A stretch of DNA of 64,000 nucleotides, from NCBI RefSeq assembly GCF_000183745.1, contig NC_014761.1:372001-436000 (forward strand), read 5' to 3'. The number at the start of each line of letters is the position of its first letter. The first letter of the stretch is position 1. Shown here in pieces: positions 16,410 through 38,928 of the stretch. The DNA comes from Oceanithermus profundus DSM 14977 (GTDB lineage: Bacteria; Deinococcota; Deinococci; Deinococcales; Marinithermaceae). The notes below the pieces were generated by a model, which did no database searches, had not been told where the DNA came from, and saw only the letters and a program-made list of their open reading frames with translations. The position numbers were made by a program, and so were the translations under genes.

Positions 16410-16499
16410 GAAGCCATTCTACCGTCGCCGCCGGGGCCGACCGGGCGGTTTCGTGGTAGCGTAAGGCTAGCCCCGCAAGGGGTGACAACTCGGCCTCGA

Positions 16500-16630
16500 G
16501 GTCCCTGGTGCCTGGCGCGCGTAGCCCAGGCTTAAAGTGGGGAAGTCCGGTGAGAGTCCGGCGCTGTCCCGCAACGGTCATGGCTCCCCCAGAGGAGCAC
16601 GAGCCCGAACACCTGCCAGGGAAGCCCCGC
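16500..16630 (+). ncRNA. Cobalamin riboswitch aptamer
   Basis: The leader of the B12 operon carries the conserved cobalamin-riboswitch blocks in order: GGTGCCTGG, GAAGTCCGGTGAGAGTCCGG, GCTGTCCCGCAACGGT, and the B12-box region GAGCCCGAACACCTGCC ending near 16618. A promoter-like TAGCGT lies at 16457-16462. Binding of a cobalamin is expected to lower expression of the downstream uptake and synthesis genes through the terminator at 16693-16719. Class details beyond the general B12 fold were not resolved. Confidence 0.95.
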
Positions 16631-16692
16631 ACCCCACGGGGCACCTCTCGCGGAAGGGGGCGGTTAGGGGGCGTCATGCACATGACCCTGAA

Positions 16693-20315: not shown

Positions 20316-21119
20316 ATGGACCGGCGGATCGAGGCCTTGCGGGCGTTTCGGCGTCGCCACCGGCTGCGTTCGCTGGAGCAGGATGGTCGGGTCTGGCGTT
20401 ACTACGCACTGGGCGAAGGACGGCGCACCCTCCTCTTCCTGCACGGCATGGCCGGCGCCGGCGACATCTGGTTCCAGCAGCTCGAGGCCTACGCGGAGCG
20501 CTGGCGGGTGGTGGCCCCCACCTACCCGGCGACCGGGTCGCTGGAGGGGCTGGCGGGCGGCGTTTGGGCGGTGCTCGACGCGGCGGGCGCGCCGAGCGCG
20601 GTGGTGGTCGGCACCTCGCTCGGCGGCCTGCTGGCCCAGTACCTGGCGGCCCGCCGCCCGGAGCGGGTGGAGCGGGCCGTCTTCGCCAACACCTTTCCAC
20701 CGGGTCATCCCGAGATCCTGAAGGGCCGCCGCATGGCGGCGCTCGCCCGCTGGCTGCCCGAGCGGCTGGTGCTGGGGGCGATGCTGCACAACGCCCGGCG
20801 AAAGCTGGTGCCGGCTGCCGGCGGCGATGCGCTGCTCGCCTACTACCTGGAGGAACAGTACACCCGCCGGATGCGCAAGGCCGACGTCCTGGCCCGTTCG
20901 CGGGCCGTTTTCGAAACCTTCGCGCTCCCCGAGCCGCGCATGCCCCACGCCGTCTTCGAGGCCGCGAACGATCCGCTCATCCCGCCGCGGGCGCGCGCCG
21001 ACCTGAAGGCGCGCTACCCGGAGGCCTTCGTGCGCGACCTTGGGGCCGTGGGCCACTTTCCCTACCTGAGCCATCCCGAGCGCTTCAACGCCGCGCTCGA
21101 CGCGTTCTTGGAGTCGTGA
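20316..21119 (+). CDS. Alpha/beta hydrolase in the B12 operon
   Basis: A 267-aa alpha/beta-hydrolase fold protein with the oxyanion HG motif (FLHGMAGAGD at 41-50), nucleophile elbow GTSLGG with Ser101, an acid near 221 (AANDPLIPP) and the catalytic His near 248 (VGHFPYL). The substrate is unknown; related genes appear among general carboxylesterases. A TAGGCT box overlapping the cobO stop (20305-20310) lies 5 nt before the ATG, so it may have its own internal leaderless promoter. Its TGA overlaps the cbiA GTG. Confidence 0.85.
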   Translation: MDRRIEALRAFRRRHRLRSLEQDGRVWRYYALGEGRRTLLFLHGMAGAGDIWFQQLEAYAERWRVVAPTYPATGSLEGLAGGVWAVLDAAGAPSAVVVGTSLGGLLAQYLAARRPERVERAVFANTFPPGHPEILKGRRMAALARWLPERLVLGAMLHNARRKLVPAAGGDALLAYYLEEQYTRRMRKADVLARSRAVFETFALPEPRMPHAVFEAANDPLIPPRARADLKARYPEAFVRDLGAVGHFPYLSHPERFNAALDAFLES

Positions 21120-22447
21120 AGCTGCCGCGTCTGGTGATCGCCGCGCCGTCGTCGGGTTCGGGAAAAACGACGGTGGCGGCGGTCTTGCTGGCGGCCTGGC
21201 GGGCGCGGGGCCGGGTCGTGCAGCCCTTCAAGGCGGGCCCCGACTACATCGATCCTACCCACCTGGGCCGGGCGGCGGGGCGGACGCCGCGCAACCTCGA
21301 CGGCTGGTTCCTCGACCGGCCCGAGCTGCTCGAGGTCTTCCGGCGCGGATCGGCGGGTGCGGAGGGCGCGCTGGTGGAAGGGGTGATGGGGCTCTTCGAC
21401 GGGCGCGACGCCCTGGGGCGCGAGGGCTCCACCGCCCAGGCGGCGCGCTGGCTGGACGCGCCGGTGGTGCTGGTGGTGGACGCGCGGGCGATGGCCGGCT
21501 CCATCGCCGCGCTGGTGCGGGGGTTTCGCGACCACGACCCGCGCCTGTGGCTGGCAGGGGTGGTGGCCAACCGGGTGGGCTCGGCGCGGCACGCGGAGAT
21601 CCTGACCGAGGCGCTCGAGCCCGTGGGGGTGCCGCTGCTGGGCTACCTGCCGCGCGACCCCGCGTTCGCGCTGCCCGAGCGGCACCTGGGCCTGGTGCCG
21701 GCCGGCGAGCGTTCGCTCGAACCCGAAGCCTGGGCCCGGGCGGCGGGCACGCTCGACGTGGAGGCGCTGTGGCGGCTGGCGCAGGCGGCGCCGGCGCTCG
21801 AGCTTCCCCCGCATCGTTTGCCCGAAGGGCGCCGGCCCCTGCGGGCGCGGATCGCGGTGGCCCGGGACGCCGCCTTCAGCTTTTACTACCCCGAGGCGCT
21901 CGAGCTGCTCGAGCAGCTGGGCGCGGAGCTCGTGCCCTTCAGCCCGCTCGCGGACGAGGGGCCGCCCGAGGACGCGGGCGCGGTCTGGATCGGTGGGGGG
22001 TATCCCGAGCTCTACGCGCGCGAGCTGGCCGCGAACCGGGGCGCGCTGGCGGCGCTGCGCCGCTTCCCGGGGCCGGTCTACGCCGAGTGCGGCGGCCTGA
22101 TGTACCTCTCCGAGGCCCTCGAGACCCCCGAGGGGCGCTATGCGATGGTCGGCCTGGTGCCCGGCGCGGCGCGCATGCAAAACCGCCCCACCCTGGGCTA
22201 CCGTCACGTCGAGGCGCTGGCCGACGGTCCGGTGGCCCGGCGCGGCTGGCGCGCCAAGGGGCACGCCTTCCACTACTCCACCCGCCCCGCGGTGGAGCCC
22301 GCGGCCTGGCGGCGGGTGGACGGGACCGAGCGCGAGGGCTACTCGGACGGCCGGGTGCACGCCAGCTACACCCACCTCTACTTCCCGGCGGCGCCCGAGC
22401 TGGCCCGGCGCTTCGTCGAGGCGGCCGCCGCGCGCGCGGGGGTGTGA
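21116..22447 (+). CDS. cbiA: Cobyrinate a,c-diamide synthase
   Basis: A 443-aa glutamine amidotransferase-type enzyme that amidates the a and c side chains of cobyrinate. The N-terminal ATP domain carries PSSGSGKT at 11-18, QPFKAGPDYIDPTHL near 36-50 and VEGVMGLFDG near 87-96. The C-terminal GATase domain has the triad-type Cys325 in YAECGGLMYL and the His in ASYTHLYF near the end. The start GTG at 21116 shares GTGA with the preceding stop. Length and motifs match CbiA/CobB. Confidence 0.95.
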   Translation: MKLPRLVIAAPSSGSGKTTVAAVLLAAWRARGRVVQPFKAGPDYIDPTHLGRAAGRTPRNLDGWFLDRPELLEVFRRGSAGAEGALVEGVMGLFDGRDALGREGSTAQAARWLDAPVVLVVDARAMAGSIAALVRGFRDHDPRLWLAGVVANRVGSARHAEILTEALEPVGVPLLGYLPRDPAFALPERHLGLVPAGERSLEPEAWARAAGTLDVEALWRLAQAAPALELPPHRLPEGRRPLRARIAVARDAAFSFYYPEALELLEQLGAELVPFSPLADEGPPEDAGAVWIGGGYPELYARELAANRGALAALRRFPGPVYAECGGLMYLSEALETPEGRYAMVGLVPGAARMQNRPTLGYRHVEALADGPVARRGWRAKGHAFHYSTRPAVEPAAWRRVDGTEREGYSDGRVHASYTHLYFPAAPELARRFVEAAAARAGV

Positions 22448-22448
22448 G

Positions 22449-23318
22449 TTGGCCGTCCTGCTCGCCGCCCTCCTCGACGCCGTCTTTCGCGAACCGCCCG
22501 CGCGGCTGCACCCGGTGGTGGGGATCGGGCGGCTGCTGGCGGGGCTCGAGTGCTTCTGGCGCGCGGGCGCGGGCGCGGGCGCGCTGGCCTGGCTCGCGGG
22601 GGCGGCGGCGGTGCTCGCGCTTTCCTCGCTGGCGTGGTGGGGTGTGAGCGCGCTCGAAGCGCCCGGCCGCGCGCTGCTGGCCGGCCTGCTGCTGTGGCCG
22701 GCCTTCTCGCTGCAGATGCTCACGGGCGAGGTGGCCGCGGTGGAGGCGGCGCTTTCGCGCGATCTGGACGAAGCCCGCGCGCGGCTTGCGCGGCTGGTGA
22801 GCCGCGACACTCGGGGACTCGATGCGGCCGGGGTGCGCATGGCGGCCTTGGAGACCCTGGCCGAGAACCTTTCCGACAGCTTGGTGGCTCCGCTCTTCTA
22901 CTTCGTCCTCTTCGGCCTTCCGGGGGCCTGGCTCTACCGCTACGCCAACACCGCCGACGCGGTCTGGGGCTACCGCACGCCCCGCTACCGGCGCTGGGGG
23001 TGGCTGGCGGCCCGGGCCGACGACCTGCTGAACTGGATTCCCGCGCGCCTGACCGGCTTGCTGCTGGCCCCGCGGGGCCTCGCGGCGCTGCGCCGCGAGG
23101 CCGGCCGCACCCCCTCGCCCAACGCCGGCTGGCCGATGGGGGCGCTGGCCCTGGCGCTGGGGGTGCGGCTCGAGAAGCGGGGCGCCTACGTGCTCCACCC
23201 TTCCGGCCGCGCGCCCGAACCCGCCGACCTGCGGCGGGCGCTGGTGCGGGTGCGGCGGGTGGCGGTCGCGGTCTACGCGCTGGCCGCCCTGCTGAGCTGG
23301 GGGAGGTGGGGGCTGTGA
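22449..23318 (+). CDS. cbiB: Adenosylcobinamide-phosphate synthase (CbiB/CobD membrane enzyme)
   Basis: A 289-aa membrane enzyme that attaches the aminopropanol phosphate linker to adenosylcobyrate. The start motif LDAVFREPPARLHPVVGIGR, SRDTRGLDAAGVRMAALETLAENLSD (split across 112-137), PLFYFVLFG and the TPSPNAGWPMGALALAL block are diagnostic. No ATG or GTG is available in frame near the operon junction. A TTG at 22449, two bases past the cbiA stop, is the best start. The 3' end shares GTGA with the next gene. Confidence 0.92.
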   Translation: MAVLLAALLDAVFREPPARLHPVVGIGRLLAGLECFWRAGAGAGALAWLAGAAAVLALSSLAWWGVSALEAPGRALLAGLLLWPAFSLQMLTGEVAAVEAALSRDLDEARARLARLVSRDTRGLDAAGVRMAALETLAENLSDSLVAPLFYFVLFGLPGAWLYRYANTADAVWGYRTPRYRRWGWLAARADDLLNWIPARLTGLLLAPRGLAALRREAGRTPSPNAGWPMGALALALGVRLEKRGAYVLHPSGRAPEPADLRRALVRVRRVAVAVYALAALLSWGRWGL

Positions 23319-24286: not shown

Positions 24287-25029
24287 GCCGGGCGGTATCA
24301 TCAGGACCAGGCATGGAGCCCCTGCACTTTTTGTTCATCGACGAAACCGGCGTGCTCAGCCGCGACCGGCGCCAGCCCTTCTTCGGTCTGGGGCTGTTGC
24401 GCACCGCCGACACCGCCGCGCTTTCGGCCGAGCTGCACGCGCTCCTGCAACAGGCGCGCGGCCGCGTGCACCCGCGCTTCGAGTTCAAGTTCGCCCGCAT
24501 CGGGCGGAGGAGCGCCTGGGTCTACCGCGAGCTGGTGGACCTCTTCTTCGGCGTGCCGGGGCTCGGCTTCAAGGCCCAGGTGCTCGACAAACGCCAGCCC
24601 GGCTTCGACCCCGGACGCAACTACGGCGGCCTCTGGGAGGCGCAGATCGGCTACACCCGCCGGCTCGTGGACAGCGCCCTGGCCGACGGCGCCTACGGCG
24701 TGGTCATCGCCGACCACGTGACCAAGCCGCGCGAGTCGCAGCGCTACTTCGAGCGCGAGGTGCGCCGCCACCCGCGGGTGCTGAACGCTTTGATGCTCGA
24801 TTCCAACGCCACCCTCTACGTGCAGCTGGCCGACGTGCTCTTGGGCCTCGTGGTCTACGACTGCAAGGTGCGCGCCGGCGCGGCCGCGCCCAACCCGGTC
24901 AAGCAGGAGATCGCCCGTTACCTGGCCGGGCGCGTGGGTGTGAGCGAGCTCTGCCGGCCTCACACCCGTCGTGAACCGCCTTACTTTGGCGTGCGCCTGG
25001 TGGCTCCGCCGGGAGGCAAGGAAGAATGA
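24283..25029 (+). CDS. DUF3800 domain protein
   Basis: A 248-aa protein with the DUF3800 N-terminal FLFIDETGVLSRD motif (FIDESG-like acidic strand) and the C-terminal QLADVLLGLVVYD motif, an RNase H-like arrangement of acidic residues. The family function is not established, and it is often seen in mobile or defence contexts. Two starts compete. ATG 24283 overlaps the cobD stop and has GGAGGAG upstream (used here). ATG 24313 has a TATCAT box about 11 nt before it. The next gene overlaps by 4 bp, so it is part of the operon despite its odd family. Confidence 0.85.
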   Translation: MSRAVSSGPGMEPLHFLFIDETGVLSRDRRQPFFGLGLLRTADTAALSAELHALLQQARGRVHPRFEFKFARIGRRSAWVYRELVDLFFGVPGLGFKAQVLDKRQPGFDPGRNYGGLWEAQIGYTRRLVDSALADGAYGVVIADHVTKPRESQRYFEREVRRHPRVLNALMLDSNATLYVQLADVLLGLVVYDCKVRAGAAAPNPVKQEIARYLAGRVGVSELCRPHTRREPPYFGVRLVAPPGGKEE

Positions 25030-25559
25030 AGACCCTGTTCTTGATCCGCCACGGCGAGAACATCTGGAACCGCGAGCACCGGCTGGGCGGCTGGACCGAC
25101 GTGCCGCTGACGCCGCTGGGGCGCGCGCAGGCCGCGGGGTTGCGGCCGCAACTGGCGGGCGAACGCTTCGACGCCGTCTGGGCGAGCGACTTGGTGCGGG
25201 CCTGGAAGACGGCCGAGCTGGCGGGCTTCGTGCCCGAAAGGGTGCCCGAGTTGCGCGAGATCCACTTCGGCCGGCTCGAGGGTCGGCGCTGGGAGAGCCT
25301 GGATCCGGCGACGCAGGAGGCGATGATGGGCTTCGAGCGCTTTCGCGCCCCCGGCGGCGAGGCGACGCTGGAGGTGCTCGAGCGGGTGACCGCCTTCGTG
25401 GACGCGCTGCCGGCGGGGCGGCACCTGATCTTCAGCCACGCCGGGGTGATGCGCGCGCTCTTGTGGCTCTCCGGGGACCTGCAGATCGTTCCCCACACCA
25501 CGGTCTACGTCTACGAGTGGCCGGCCCGGCGTTTGGTGGAGGTATGGCGCGAAGACTAG
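25026..25559 (+). CDS. cobC: Histidine phosphatase, CobC-like (alpha-ribazole phosphatase)
   Basis: A 177-aa phosphoglycerate-mutase-fold protein with the phosphohistidine motif LIRHGEN at 6-12, WASDLVRAWKTAE near 56-68 and the second catalytic His in IFSHAGVMRAL near 135-146. The location between B12 genes suggests removal of the phosphate from alpha-ribazole phosphate or cobalamin phosphate. General sugar-phosphate phosphatases share the motifs. The ATG overlaps the DUF3800 stop by ATGA, and the 3' end overlaps cobQ by 16 bp. Confidence 0.85.
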   Translation: MKTLFLIRHGENIWNREHRLGGWTDVPLTPLGRAQAAGLRPQLAGERFDAVWASDLVRAWKTAELAGFVPERVPELREIHFGRLEGRRWESLDPATQEAMMGFERFRAPGGEATLEVLERVTAFVDALPAGRHLIFSHAGVMRALLWLSGDLQIVPHTTVYVYEWPARRLVEVWRED

Positions 25560-27526
25560 CCCCGGTGCTGATGGTCCAGGGGGCCACCTCGGGTGCGGGG
25601 AAGAGCCTGCTGGTGACCGCGCTGGCGCGCTGGTTCGCCCGCCGGGGCGTGCGGACGGCCCCCTTCAAGGCGCAGAACATGTCGAACCACGCCCGCGTGG
25701 CCGCGGGCGGCGAGATGGGCAGCGCCCAGTACCTGCAGGCGCTGGCGGCCGGAGCGACGCCGGAGGTGCGGATGAACCCGGTGCTGCTCAAGCCCGAGGC
25801 CGAGACCCGTAGTCAGGTGGTGGTGCTGGGCCGGCACGACCCCGCGCTCTCGCGCACGTCCTGGAACGAGCGCAAGCCGCGGCTGTGGCCGGTGGTGCGG
25901 GAGAGCCTGCGGGCGCTGCGCGAAGAGTACGAGCTGGTGCTCGCCGAGGGGGCGGGCAGCCCCGCCGAGGTCAACCTGCGCGCCGGCGACCTCGTCAACA
26001 TGGCCGTCGCCCGCGAGGCGGGCGCGGCGGTGCTGCTGGTGGCCGATATCGACCGCGGCGGCGCCTTCGCCCACCTCTGGGGCACCTGGAGCCTGCTCGC
26101 GGCCGAGGAGCGTGCGCTGGTGCGGGGCTTCGTGCTCAACAAGTTCCGCGGCGACGCCGCGCTGCTCGCGCCCGCGCCCGAGCAGCTCGAGCGCTGGACC
26201 GAGGTGCCCACGCTGGGGGTGCTACCCTACCTGCGCCACCGCCTCCCCGACGAGGACGCGCCGCTCTTGGGCACGGCCGCGGGGGGCGCGGGGCCGCGCG
26301 TCGCCATCGTCGCCTACCCCTACGCCTCGAACCTCGACGAGTTCTGGCCGCTTGCGGAGCTGGCCCGGGTGGAGCTGGTGCGCGAGCCGGCCGCGCTGGC
26401 GGAGGCCGAGCTGGTGATCCTGCCCGGCTCCAAGCACACCGCCGCCAGCGCCGAATGGCTGGCGTCGAGCGGGATGGCGCGGGCGCTGCGCGACTACGCG
26501 GCCTCGGGCCGACCGCTGCTGGGCGTCTGCGGCGGGCTGCAGCTTTTGGGCCGCGCGGTGCACGACCCCGAGGGGGTGGAGGGCGCGGCGCAGGGGCTCG
26601 GGCTCTTGGAGCTCGAGACGACGATGGACCCCGGCAAGACGGTGCGCCGCAGCCGCGGCCGTTTTGCGGAGCTGGAGGGCTACTGGGCGGCGCTCAGCGG
26701 CCTGGAGGCCTGGGGCTACGAGATCCACCACGGCAACAGCCGCGCCGGCGGCGGGACCCGCGAGGCGTTGGCCAGCGGGCTGGGCTTCGCCCGGGGCAAC
26801 GTGCTGGGCGTCTACCTGCACGGCCTCTTCGAGGACCCGGCGGTGCAGCGGGCGCTCTTCGGCCGTGCGGCGGCGGGCCTGGAGCGCGAGTTCGACCGGC
26901 TGGCGGACGCGCTGGAGGAACATCTGGACATGGAGCGCATCGAAAATATGACGTTTTCGCACCGAAAGCCTGCGGGGCGCGCGGGGCCGGTCGCGCCCCC
27001 GGACCCGCCCCGGATTCCGCGCCTCGTCCTCTACCTGGGTGGGGCGCGGGCGGGAAAGAGCGCCGCGGCGCTGGCCCGGGCGCGGGCGCTGGGGGGCGGG
27101 GCGGTCAGCTTCGTCGCCACCGCCTCCCCCGGCGACGAGGAGATGGCGGCGCGGGCGGCGGCCCACCGGGCCGAGCGGCCCGCCGCCTGGGAGACGATCG
27201 AAGAACCCCGCGACGCGGCGGCGGCGCTGGGGCGCGCGAAACACGACGTCGTCGTGCTCGACTGCCTGACCCTGCTGGTCAGCAACCTGCTGCTAGAGGG
27301 CGGCGAGGCGGCGGTGCGAGAGGGCGTGGAAGCGCTGCTCGCCGCCTGGCGCGAAAGCGGCAGGACGCTCGTCGTCGTCAGCAACGAGGTGGGGATGGGC
27401 ATCGTGCCGGAGAACGCCCTGGCCCGGCGCTACCGCGACCTGCTGGGCTGGGCCAACCGCACCGTGGCCGCGGCGGCGGACGAGGTGCGCCTAGTGGTGG
27501 CGGGGCGGGAGTTGCCGCTCGGGTAG
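25544..27526 (+). CDS. cobQ: Cobyric acid synthase / adenosylcobinamide kinase fusion (CobQ-CobU)
   Basis: One uninterrupted 660-codon frame holds two enzymes. Residues 1 to about 465 are CobQ/CbiP: VQGATSGAGKSLL, APFKAQNMSNHA, the GATase nucleophile region LLGVCGGLQLLG and GVYLHGLFED. After a polar Pro/Arg linker (about 469-490) follows CobU: P-loop LGGARAGKSAAAL, DCLTLLVSNLLLEGG and SNEVGMGIVPENALARRYRD. CobQ amidates four corrin side chains. CobU phosphorylates adenosylcobinamide and adds GMP. An ATG at 26948 could also start a separate CobU, with only a weak GGAG upstream. The ATG at 25544 has GGTGGAGGT upstream and overlaps cobC. Confidence 0.92.
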   Translation: MARRLAPVLMVQGATSGAGKSLLVTALARWFARRGVRTAPFKAQNMSNHARVAAGGEMGSAQYLQALAAGATPEVRMNPVLLKPEAETRSQVVVLGRHDPALSRTSWNERKPRLWPVVRESLRALREEYELVLAEGAGSPAEVNLRAGDLVNMAVAREAGAAVLLVADIDRGGAFAHLWGTWSLLAAEERALVRGFVLNKFRGDAALLAPAPEQLERWTEVPTLGVLPYLRHRLPDEDAPLLGTAAGGAGPRVAIVAYPYASNLDEFWPLAELARVELVREPAALAEAELVILPGSKHTAASAEWLASSGMARALRDYAASGRPLLGVCGGLQLLGRAVHDPEGVEGAAQGLGLLELETTMDPGKTVRRSRGRFAELEGYWAALSGLEAWGYEIHHGNSRAGGGTREALASGLGFARGNVLGVYLHGLFEDPAVQRALFGRAAAGLEREFDRLADALEEHLDMERIENMTFSHRKPAGRAGPVAPPDPPRIPRLVLYLGGARAGKSAAALARARALGGGAVSFVATASPGDEEMAARAAAHRAERPAAWETIEEPRDAAAALGRAKHDVVVLDCLTLLVSNLLLEGGEAAVREGVEALLAAWRESGRTLVVVSNEVGMGIVPENALARRYRDLLGWANRTVAAAADEVRLVVAGRELPLG

Positions 27527-37878: not shown

Positions 37879-38928
37879 ATGAGCCGCGTACCTCCCGTCG
37901 ACCGCGAATTTCTCGATCGTGCCCGCGCCCGTCAGGACCGCCTCACCAAGCCCCCCGGCTCCCTGGGGCGGCTCGAGGAGGCGGGCGTCCGCCTCGCGGC
38001 CATCCAGCGCACCGAAAGGCCCCGGCTGGGGCCGGGCGCGGTGGTGGTGGCCGCCGCCGACCACGGCGTGACCGCCGAGGGCGTCTCGGCCTACCCCGCC
38101 GAGGTGACCCCGCAGATGGTGCTGAACTTCCTGGCCGGGGGCGCGGCCATCAACCAGATCGCCCGGGCGGCCGGGGCCGAGGTCTACGTCCTCGACGTGG
38201 GGGTGAACGGCCCCGAGTTCCCGGCCCACGAGCGCCTGATCCCGGCGCGGGTGCGCCCGGGCACGGGCAACCTCGTCCGCGAGCCCGCCATGAGCCCGGC
38301 CGAGGCCATGGCCGCGTTGCAGGCGGGGGAGAACGCCGCCCGCCGGGCGGTCAGCGAGGGGGCCACCCTCCTGGCCGCGGGCGACATGGGCATCGGCAAC
38401 ACCACGGCCGCCGCCGCCCTGACCGCCGCCCTGCTGGGGCTTCCCGCGTCCGAGGTGACCGGCCGCGGCACCGGGGTGGACGATGCGGCCTACGCCCGCA
38501 AGCTGGCGGTGGTGGAGCGGGCGCTCGCGCGCGCCGCCGCCGAGCTTGGCGACCTGGCGAAGGCCGACCCCCTCGACGTCGCGGCCCAGCTGGGCGGGCT
38601 CGAGATCGTCGCGGCCGCCGGCGTCTTCCTGGCCGCGGCCGCCGCGGGCCTGCCCGTCGTCACCGACGGGTTCCCCGTCACCGCGGGGGCGCTCCTCGCC
38701 GCCCGGCTCGAGCCCAACCTGAAGGACTACCTCTTCGCCGGCCACCGTTCGGTGGAGCCGGGGCACGCACGGCAGCTGGAGGCGCTGGGGCTCGAGCCCC
38801 TGCTCGACCTGGAGTTGCGCCTGGGCGAGGGCACCGGCGCGGTGCTCGCCTTCCCGGTGCTGCGGGCCGCGGCCGCGGTGCTCGCGGGCATGGCCACCTT
38901 CGACGAGGCCGGGGTGAGCGAGGGCTAG
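37879..38928 (+). CDS. cobT: Nicotinate-nucleotide:dimethylbenzimidazole phosphoribosyltransferase
   Basis: A 349-aa enzyme that makes alpha-ribazole phosphate for the lower ligand of cobalamin. TKPPGSLGRLEEAGVRLAAI at 23-42, VVVAAADHGVTAEGVSAYP near 56-74, AAGDMGIGNTTAAAAL near 168-183 and the tail with FAGHRSVEPGH are diagnostic. A TATCTT box at 37867-37872, 6 nt before the ATG, suggests a separate leaderless promoter. No riboswitch precedes it, so it may not be under the B12 control seen at 16.5 kb. Confidence 0.96.
   Translation: MSRVPPVDREFLDRARARQDRLTKPPGSLGRLEEAGVRLAAIQRTERPRLGPGAVVVAAADHGVTAEGVSAYPAEVTPQMVLNFLAGGAAINQIARAAGAEVYVLDVGVNGPEFPAHERLIPARVRPGTGNLVREPAMSPAEAMAALQAGENAARRAVSEGATLLAAGDMGIGNTTAAAALTAALLGLPASEVTGRGTGVDDAAYARKLAVVERALARAAAELGDLAKADPLDVAAQLGGLEIVAAAGVFLAAAAAGLPVVTDGFPVTAGALLAARLEPNLKDYLFAGHRSVEPGHARQLEALGLEPLLDLELRLGEGTGAVLAFPVLRAAAAVLAGMATFDEAGVSEG

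What the first reader, a model, noticed from the sequence alone, without database searches (positions are those of the whole stretch)
25544..27526. In-frame CobQ-CobU fusion
Cobyric acid synthase and adenosylcobinamide kinase/guanylyltransferase are normally separate. Here one 660-codon frame holds both complete motif sets, joined by a Pro/Arg-rich linker. The junction (26936-26960) is locally AT-rich and contains a small CGAAAA/TTTTCG foldback around an in-frame ATG at 26948, so internal initiation giving a separate CobU is also possible. The fused steps are not consecutive (CbiB acts between them), so channelling would skip a membrane enzyme.
Basis: seen in the sequence. Interest (0 to 1): 0.6.

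Follow-up and report, generated by a model that had tools for sequence, protein, structure and literature searches.

The report
Two vitamin B12 enzymes, one protein
In this heat-loving bacterium, its cousins and Thermus, two enzymes of late vitamin B12 synthesis that are usually made separately form one protein; the fusion is real and long conserved, but in the well-known Thermus record it is labelled as only the first enzyme.

Summary
The fusion is real. One frame at 25544-27526 (+) encodes a 660-residue, 70 kDa protein: complete cobyric acid synthase CobQ (residues 8-469), a Pro/Arg-rich disordered linker, and complete CobU (494-659). Curated NCBIfam cut-offs are passed for both, and it is the genome's only CobU. 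It is not an artefact: 12 genomes of the window's family, 25 Thermus-group genomes and two Trueperaceae read both enzymes in one frame. Catalytic residues of both are invariant in 37 fused sequences, apart from one frameshifted gene. The linker varies freely but stays in frame. Internal initiation at ATG 26948 is unlikely: that ATG is lost in two of six congeners, and several Thermus genes have no ATG/GTG/TTG between the domains. The foldback is background. T. thermophilus HB8's fused protein is filed in RefSeq only as 'cobyric acid synthase'. Trees suggest two origins (Thermus/Oceanithermus line and Truepera) from a neighbouring gene pair. The fused enzymes act on either side of membrane-bound CbiB, which fits a published proposal of a membrane B12 assembly complex; this is untested. 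Interest is modest.

The parts
25544..27526 (+). cobQ-cobU fusion gene, 660 codons plus stop, 70 kDa product
   Evidence: open frame; Pfam and NCBIfam; one frame in 39 genomes
25565..26950 (+). CobQ domain, residues 8-469: P-loop 13-21, glutaminase Cys329 and His426
   Evidence: NF001989 505 bits; Cys and His invariant in 37 fused proteins
26951..27022 (+). Linker, residues 470-493; 475-490 predicted disordered
   Evidence: pLDDT under 50; free variation in congeners; length variation across fused genes
27023..27520 (+). CobU domain, residues 494-659: P-loop 499-506, His541 (aligned with Salmonella His46), NEVGMGIVPEN 614-624
   Evidence: PF02283 177 bits, NF004469 165 bits, alignment to 1C9K, invariance
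26941..26959 (+). CGAAAA/TTTTCG foldback around ATG 26948; judged incidental
   Evidence: background frequency, not conserved
16489..16634 (+). Cobalamin riboswitch at the head of the B12 gene run
   Evidence: Rfam RF00174, 59 bits, gathering score 31.5
22437..23318 (+). cbiB, the membrane enzyme that acts between CobQ and CobU (start approximate)
   Evidence: TIGR00380 210.8 bits, cut-off 165.9
25026..25559 (+). cobC-like phosphatase; overlaps the start of the fusion gene by 16 bases
   Evidence: TIGR03162 hit below its cut-off; coordinates
37879..38928 (+). cobT
   Evidence: PF02277 443 bits
38943..39674 (+). cobS
   Evidence: PF02654 157.5 bits

Best explanation
The gene makes one multifunctional protein. 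Its N-terminal part amidates adenosylcobyrinic acid diamide to adenosylcobyric acid (CobQ); its C-terminal part phosphorylates adenosylcobinamide and guanylylates its phosphate (CobU). A flexible linker of about 24 residues joins two independently folded domains. Shown: a single frame conserved over a wide lineage, both catalytic sets intact, no second CobU in the genome. Inferred: translation as one chain, and that tethering serves co-production and co-location near CbiB at the membrane rather than direct hand-over of an intermediate, because CbiB must act in between. The fusion probably arose from an adjacent cobQ-cobU pair like the overlapping pair kept in Deinococcus.
For: Both family cut-offs passed. 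Only one CobU in the whole genome. All 12 family genomes with the gene read both domains in one frame; 25 f4 genomes (24 of genus g13 and one of g14) span both domains in one match, as do two Trueperaceae. GATase Cys/His and CobU P-loop, His541, Asn614 and Glu615 are invariant in 37 fused sequences. Congener linkers differ at 16-63% of residues except for one near-identical pair, with only whole-codon gaps. Ten rows of the linker table, about eight distinct Thermus sequences, have no ATG/GTG/TTG between CobQ's end and the CobU P-loop. Confident domains joined by a disordered linker. In three Deinococcus plasmids cobQ and cobU overlap by 4 nt; in one genome of the pseudomonad phylum both lie in one frame with a single stop (G701). 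Published proposal of a CbiB-CobU-CobT-CobC-CobS membrane complex (PMC8092220).
Against: No protein-level data. An internal start inside the CobQ domain, or proteolysis at the disordered linker, would give free CobU and cannot be excluded by sequence. In the window ATG 26930 has a fair Shine-Dalgarno match (-9.3 kcal/mol, about the best 5-6% of random positions), though that match is weak in two congeners. Related genera keep the two genes separate, so the tether is not required.
Confidence: 0.88

Rival explanations
1. Both a fused protein and a separate CobU are made, the latter from an internal start (ATG 26948 or ATG 26930) in the window's lineage.
For: In-frame ATGs at 26930 and 26948 in a locally AT-rich stretch; ATG 26930 has a -9.3 kcal/mol SD match.
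Against: ATG 26948 is a Leu codon in two of six congeners and has a weak SD (-5.6, near the random 25th percentile). ATG 26930 encodes the Met of the HLDM/HLNM end of CobQ and its SD is weak in two congeners. Several Thermus linkers have no start codon at all.
Confidence: 0.08
2. Sequencing or assembly error joined two genes.
Against: Same join in 38 other genomes, with different linkers.
Confidence: 0.01
3. The fusion channels an intermediate directly from CobQ to CobU.
For: Covalent tether only.
Against: CobQ's product is not CobU's substrate; CbiB acts in between (PMC8092220, PMC7242693). The linker is unconserved and predicted disordered.
Confidence: 0.05

Closest known systems
Thermus thermophilus HB8 WP_164926109.1 (pTT27, TTH_RS10320)
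   Same: Same CobQ-linker-CobU order in one frame, in a B12 gene run with cbiB and an aminotransferase
   Different: About 48% identical, Pro-rich linker of different sequence; on a megaplasmid; RefSeq names only the CobQ half
Truepera radiovictrix fusion (G108, L142)
   Same: Same domain order in one frame
   Different: CobQ domain groups with Deinococcus, apart from the Thermus/Oceanithermus fusions; a clade of all fusions is rejected on CobQ, AU p 2.6e-5
Deinococcus cobQ-cobU pair
   Same: Same gene order, adjacent, 4-nt overlap
   Different: Two separate proteins
Salmonella CobU (1CBU/1C9K)
   Same: P-loop, guanylylated His46, NEVGMGIVPEN motif
   Different: Stand-alone enzyme

Membership tests
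Cobyric acid synthase CobQ | Score above curated equivalog cut-off over the full model | tested here: met
   NF001989 505.3 vs 273, model 2-478 of 480; TIGR00313 402.8 vs 309.9
Cobyric acid synthase CobQ | P-loop plus glutaminase Cys and His | tested here: met
   GATSGAGKS 13-21, Cys329, His426
Cobyric acid synthase CobQ | Four-fold amidation activity | not testable with these tools
   needs an enzyme assay
CobU kinase/guanylyltransferase | Score above curated cut-off over the full model | tested here: met
   NF004469 165.3 vs 161; PF02283 177.2 vs 27
CobU kinase/guanylyltransferase | P-loop and guanylylated histidine | tested here: met
   GGARAGKS and His541 aligned with His46 of 1C9K (His46 as the site: reference 17 of PMC8092220)
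CobU kinase/guanylyltransferase | Both enzyme activities | not testable with these tools
   needs purified protein
True gene fusion (one product) | One frame without stop, conserved in relatives | tested here: met
True gene fusion (one product) | Single polypeptide in the cell | not testable with these tools
   needs proteomics

The most novel reading that the evidence does not exclude
The fusion, formed twice independently, marks a physical late-B12 assembly complex in which CobQ and CobU sit on either side of membrane-bound CbiB, extending the proposed five-enzyme complex to CobQ.
Probability: 0.25. Interest if true: 0.55.

Novelty: new variant of a known kind. Interest (0 to 1): 0.3.

Why it matters
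It exposes an annotation gap: at least in T. thermophilus HB8 the CobU activity is hidden under the name cobyric acid synthase, so pathway surveys that rely on names could score CobU as missing. It also offers a natural, heat-stable handle on the open question whether late B12 steps run in a membrane complex around CbiB (proposed in PMC8092220).

Tried and rejected
Internal start at ATG 26948: rejected on conservation and SD strength. Foldback as a signal: rejected, background frequency. Assembly artefact: rejected. Second CobU elsewhere: none. Same fusion in other phyla: none seen in 397 genomes drawn from the phylum of L005 (Actinomycetota) or 200 from that of L021 (Pseudomonadota); only the listed matches could be checked, and other phyla were not surveyed. 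Dating by tree: CobQ rejects a single clade of all fusions (AU p 2.6e-5), CobU does not (p 0.17), so two origins are likely but fission or transfer is not excluded. A single clade of the Thermus plus Oceanithermus-family fusions is not rejected (p 0.14). Literature: no paper describing this fusion found in the held open-access library; most subscription journals are not held.

Full report
What is there. The frame 25544-27526 on the + strand encodes 660 residues. Pfam finds the CobQ nucleotide-binding domain, the CobB/CobQ glutaminase domain and CobU in that order. NCBIfam's curated cut-offs are passed for cobyric acid synthase (505 bits, cut-off 273) and for the bifunctional CobU enzyme (165.3 bits, cut-off 161). 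It is the only CobU in the genome. The genome has 2,439,291 bases in two contigs, exactly the size reported for Oceanithermus profundus 506T (PMC3111992), so the window very probably comes from that strain.

Junction details. The stretch around 26936-26960 is the most AT-rich in the gene. The foldback at 26941-26959 is real, but exact 6-bp inverted repeats of that kind occur about seven times per kb in the window.

Conservation. In the window's own family, 12 of 14 genomes have the gene over both domains, all in one open frame; the two without a both-domain match are 71% and 76% complete. In the phylum search, 25 more genomes of family f4 span both domains in one match (24 of genus g13, one of g14). 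Genus g13 is Thermus: the G060 contig that holds the gene has the 143,277-base length of the T. parvatiensis plasmid, and that copy carries a frameshift near its start. Two Trueperaceae genomes are also fused; one has the exact size of Truepera radiovictrix (PMC3072082). The other f4 genera looked at (g10-g12) have separate genes, in one genome in the order cobQ-cobC-cobU. In T. thermophilus HB8 the fused protein is annotated only as cobyric acid synthase.

One protein or two. Active-site residues of both enzymes are invariant in 37 fused sequences, apart from the CobQ P-loop in the two copies of the frameshifted T. parvatiensis gene. Among congeners the linker changes at 16-63% of residues (one near-identical pair aside), with dN close to dS in the more distant pairs, while gaps are whole codons; the flanking domains are under clear purifying selection. 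ATG 26948 is a Leu codon in two of six congeners. In ten rows of the linker table, about eight distinct Thermus sequences, no ATG, GTG or TTG lies between the end of CobQ and the CobU P-loop. A start farther upstream inside CobQ, a rarer start codon, or proteolysis was not excluded. AlphaFold gives two confident domains and a linker (475-490) with pLDDT under 50.

Origin. In three Deinococcus plasmids the two genes overlap by four bases, and in one genome of the pseudomonad phylum one match runs over both domains with a single stop (G701). Fusion therefore needs only a small change. The CobQ tree places the Truepera fusions with Deinococcus, and a single clade of all fusions is rejected (AU p 2.6e-5); the CobU data do not reject it (p 0.17). 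Two independent fusions are the simplest reading, not a proven one. No fusion was seen among the listed matches in 397 and 200 genomes of two other phyla.

Function. CobQ makes adenosylcobyric acid; CbiB attaches aminopropanol phosphate; CobU then activates the product (PMC7242693, PMC8092220). Direct hand-over from CobQ to CobU is therefore not expected. [quoted passage not shown] A fusion of the enzymes on either side of CbiB fits an extended version of that idea, and equally fits plain co-expression. The window's genome has no CbiD or CbiC match, and none of 14 family genomes has CbiC, although the window's genome carries CbiA, CbiB, CobT, CobS, an adenosyltransferase, a BtuFCD-like importer and a cobalamin riboswitch. 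It therefore probably salvages corrinoids, where CobU's kinase acts on imported cobinamide (inference).

Verdict. A genuine, long-conserved lineage-specific fusion of two known enzymes, under-annotated at least in T. thermophilus and apparently undescribed in the open literature searched. Modest interest.

Noticed in passing
whole genome G000 and 13 family genomes: No CbiD (own genome) and no CbiC (14 family genomes) match, though CbiA, CobQ, CbiB, CobU, CobT and CobS are present in the window's genome: late steps kept without corrin-ring synthesis markers.
   Followed up: partly
16489-16634 (+): Cobalamin riboswitch ahead of a BtuF-like binding protein and BtuCD-like transporter genes.
   Followed up: no
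20316-21119 (+): Alpha/beta hydrolase between the corrinoid adenosyltransferase and cbiA in the B12 gene run; no specific family passes its cut-off.
   Followed up: no
24298-25029 (+, start approximate): DUF3800 protein between the CobD-like aminotransferase and the cobC-like gene.
   Followed up: no
L080 / L143, CobQ N-terminus: T. parvatiensis copy of the fusion has a frameshift near residue 55, and no gene is listed there in PLSDB.
   Followed up: no
G044:C11, G058, G061, G068: G044 has a second, partial cobQ-cobU copy; G058, G061 and G068 (Thermus) each carry two full-length matches.
   Followed up: no
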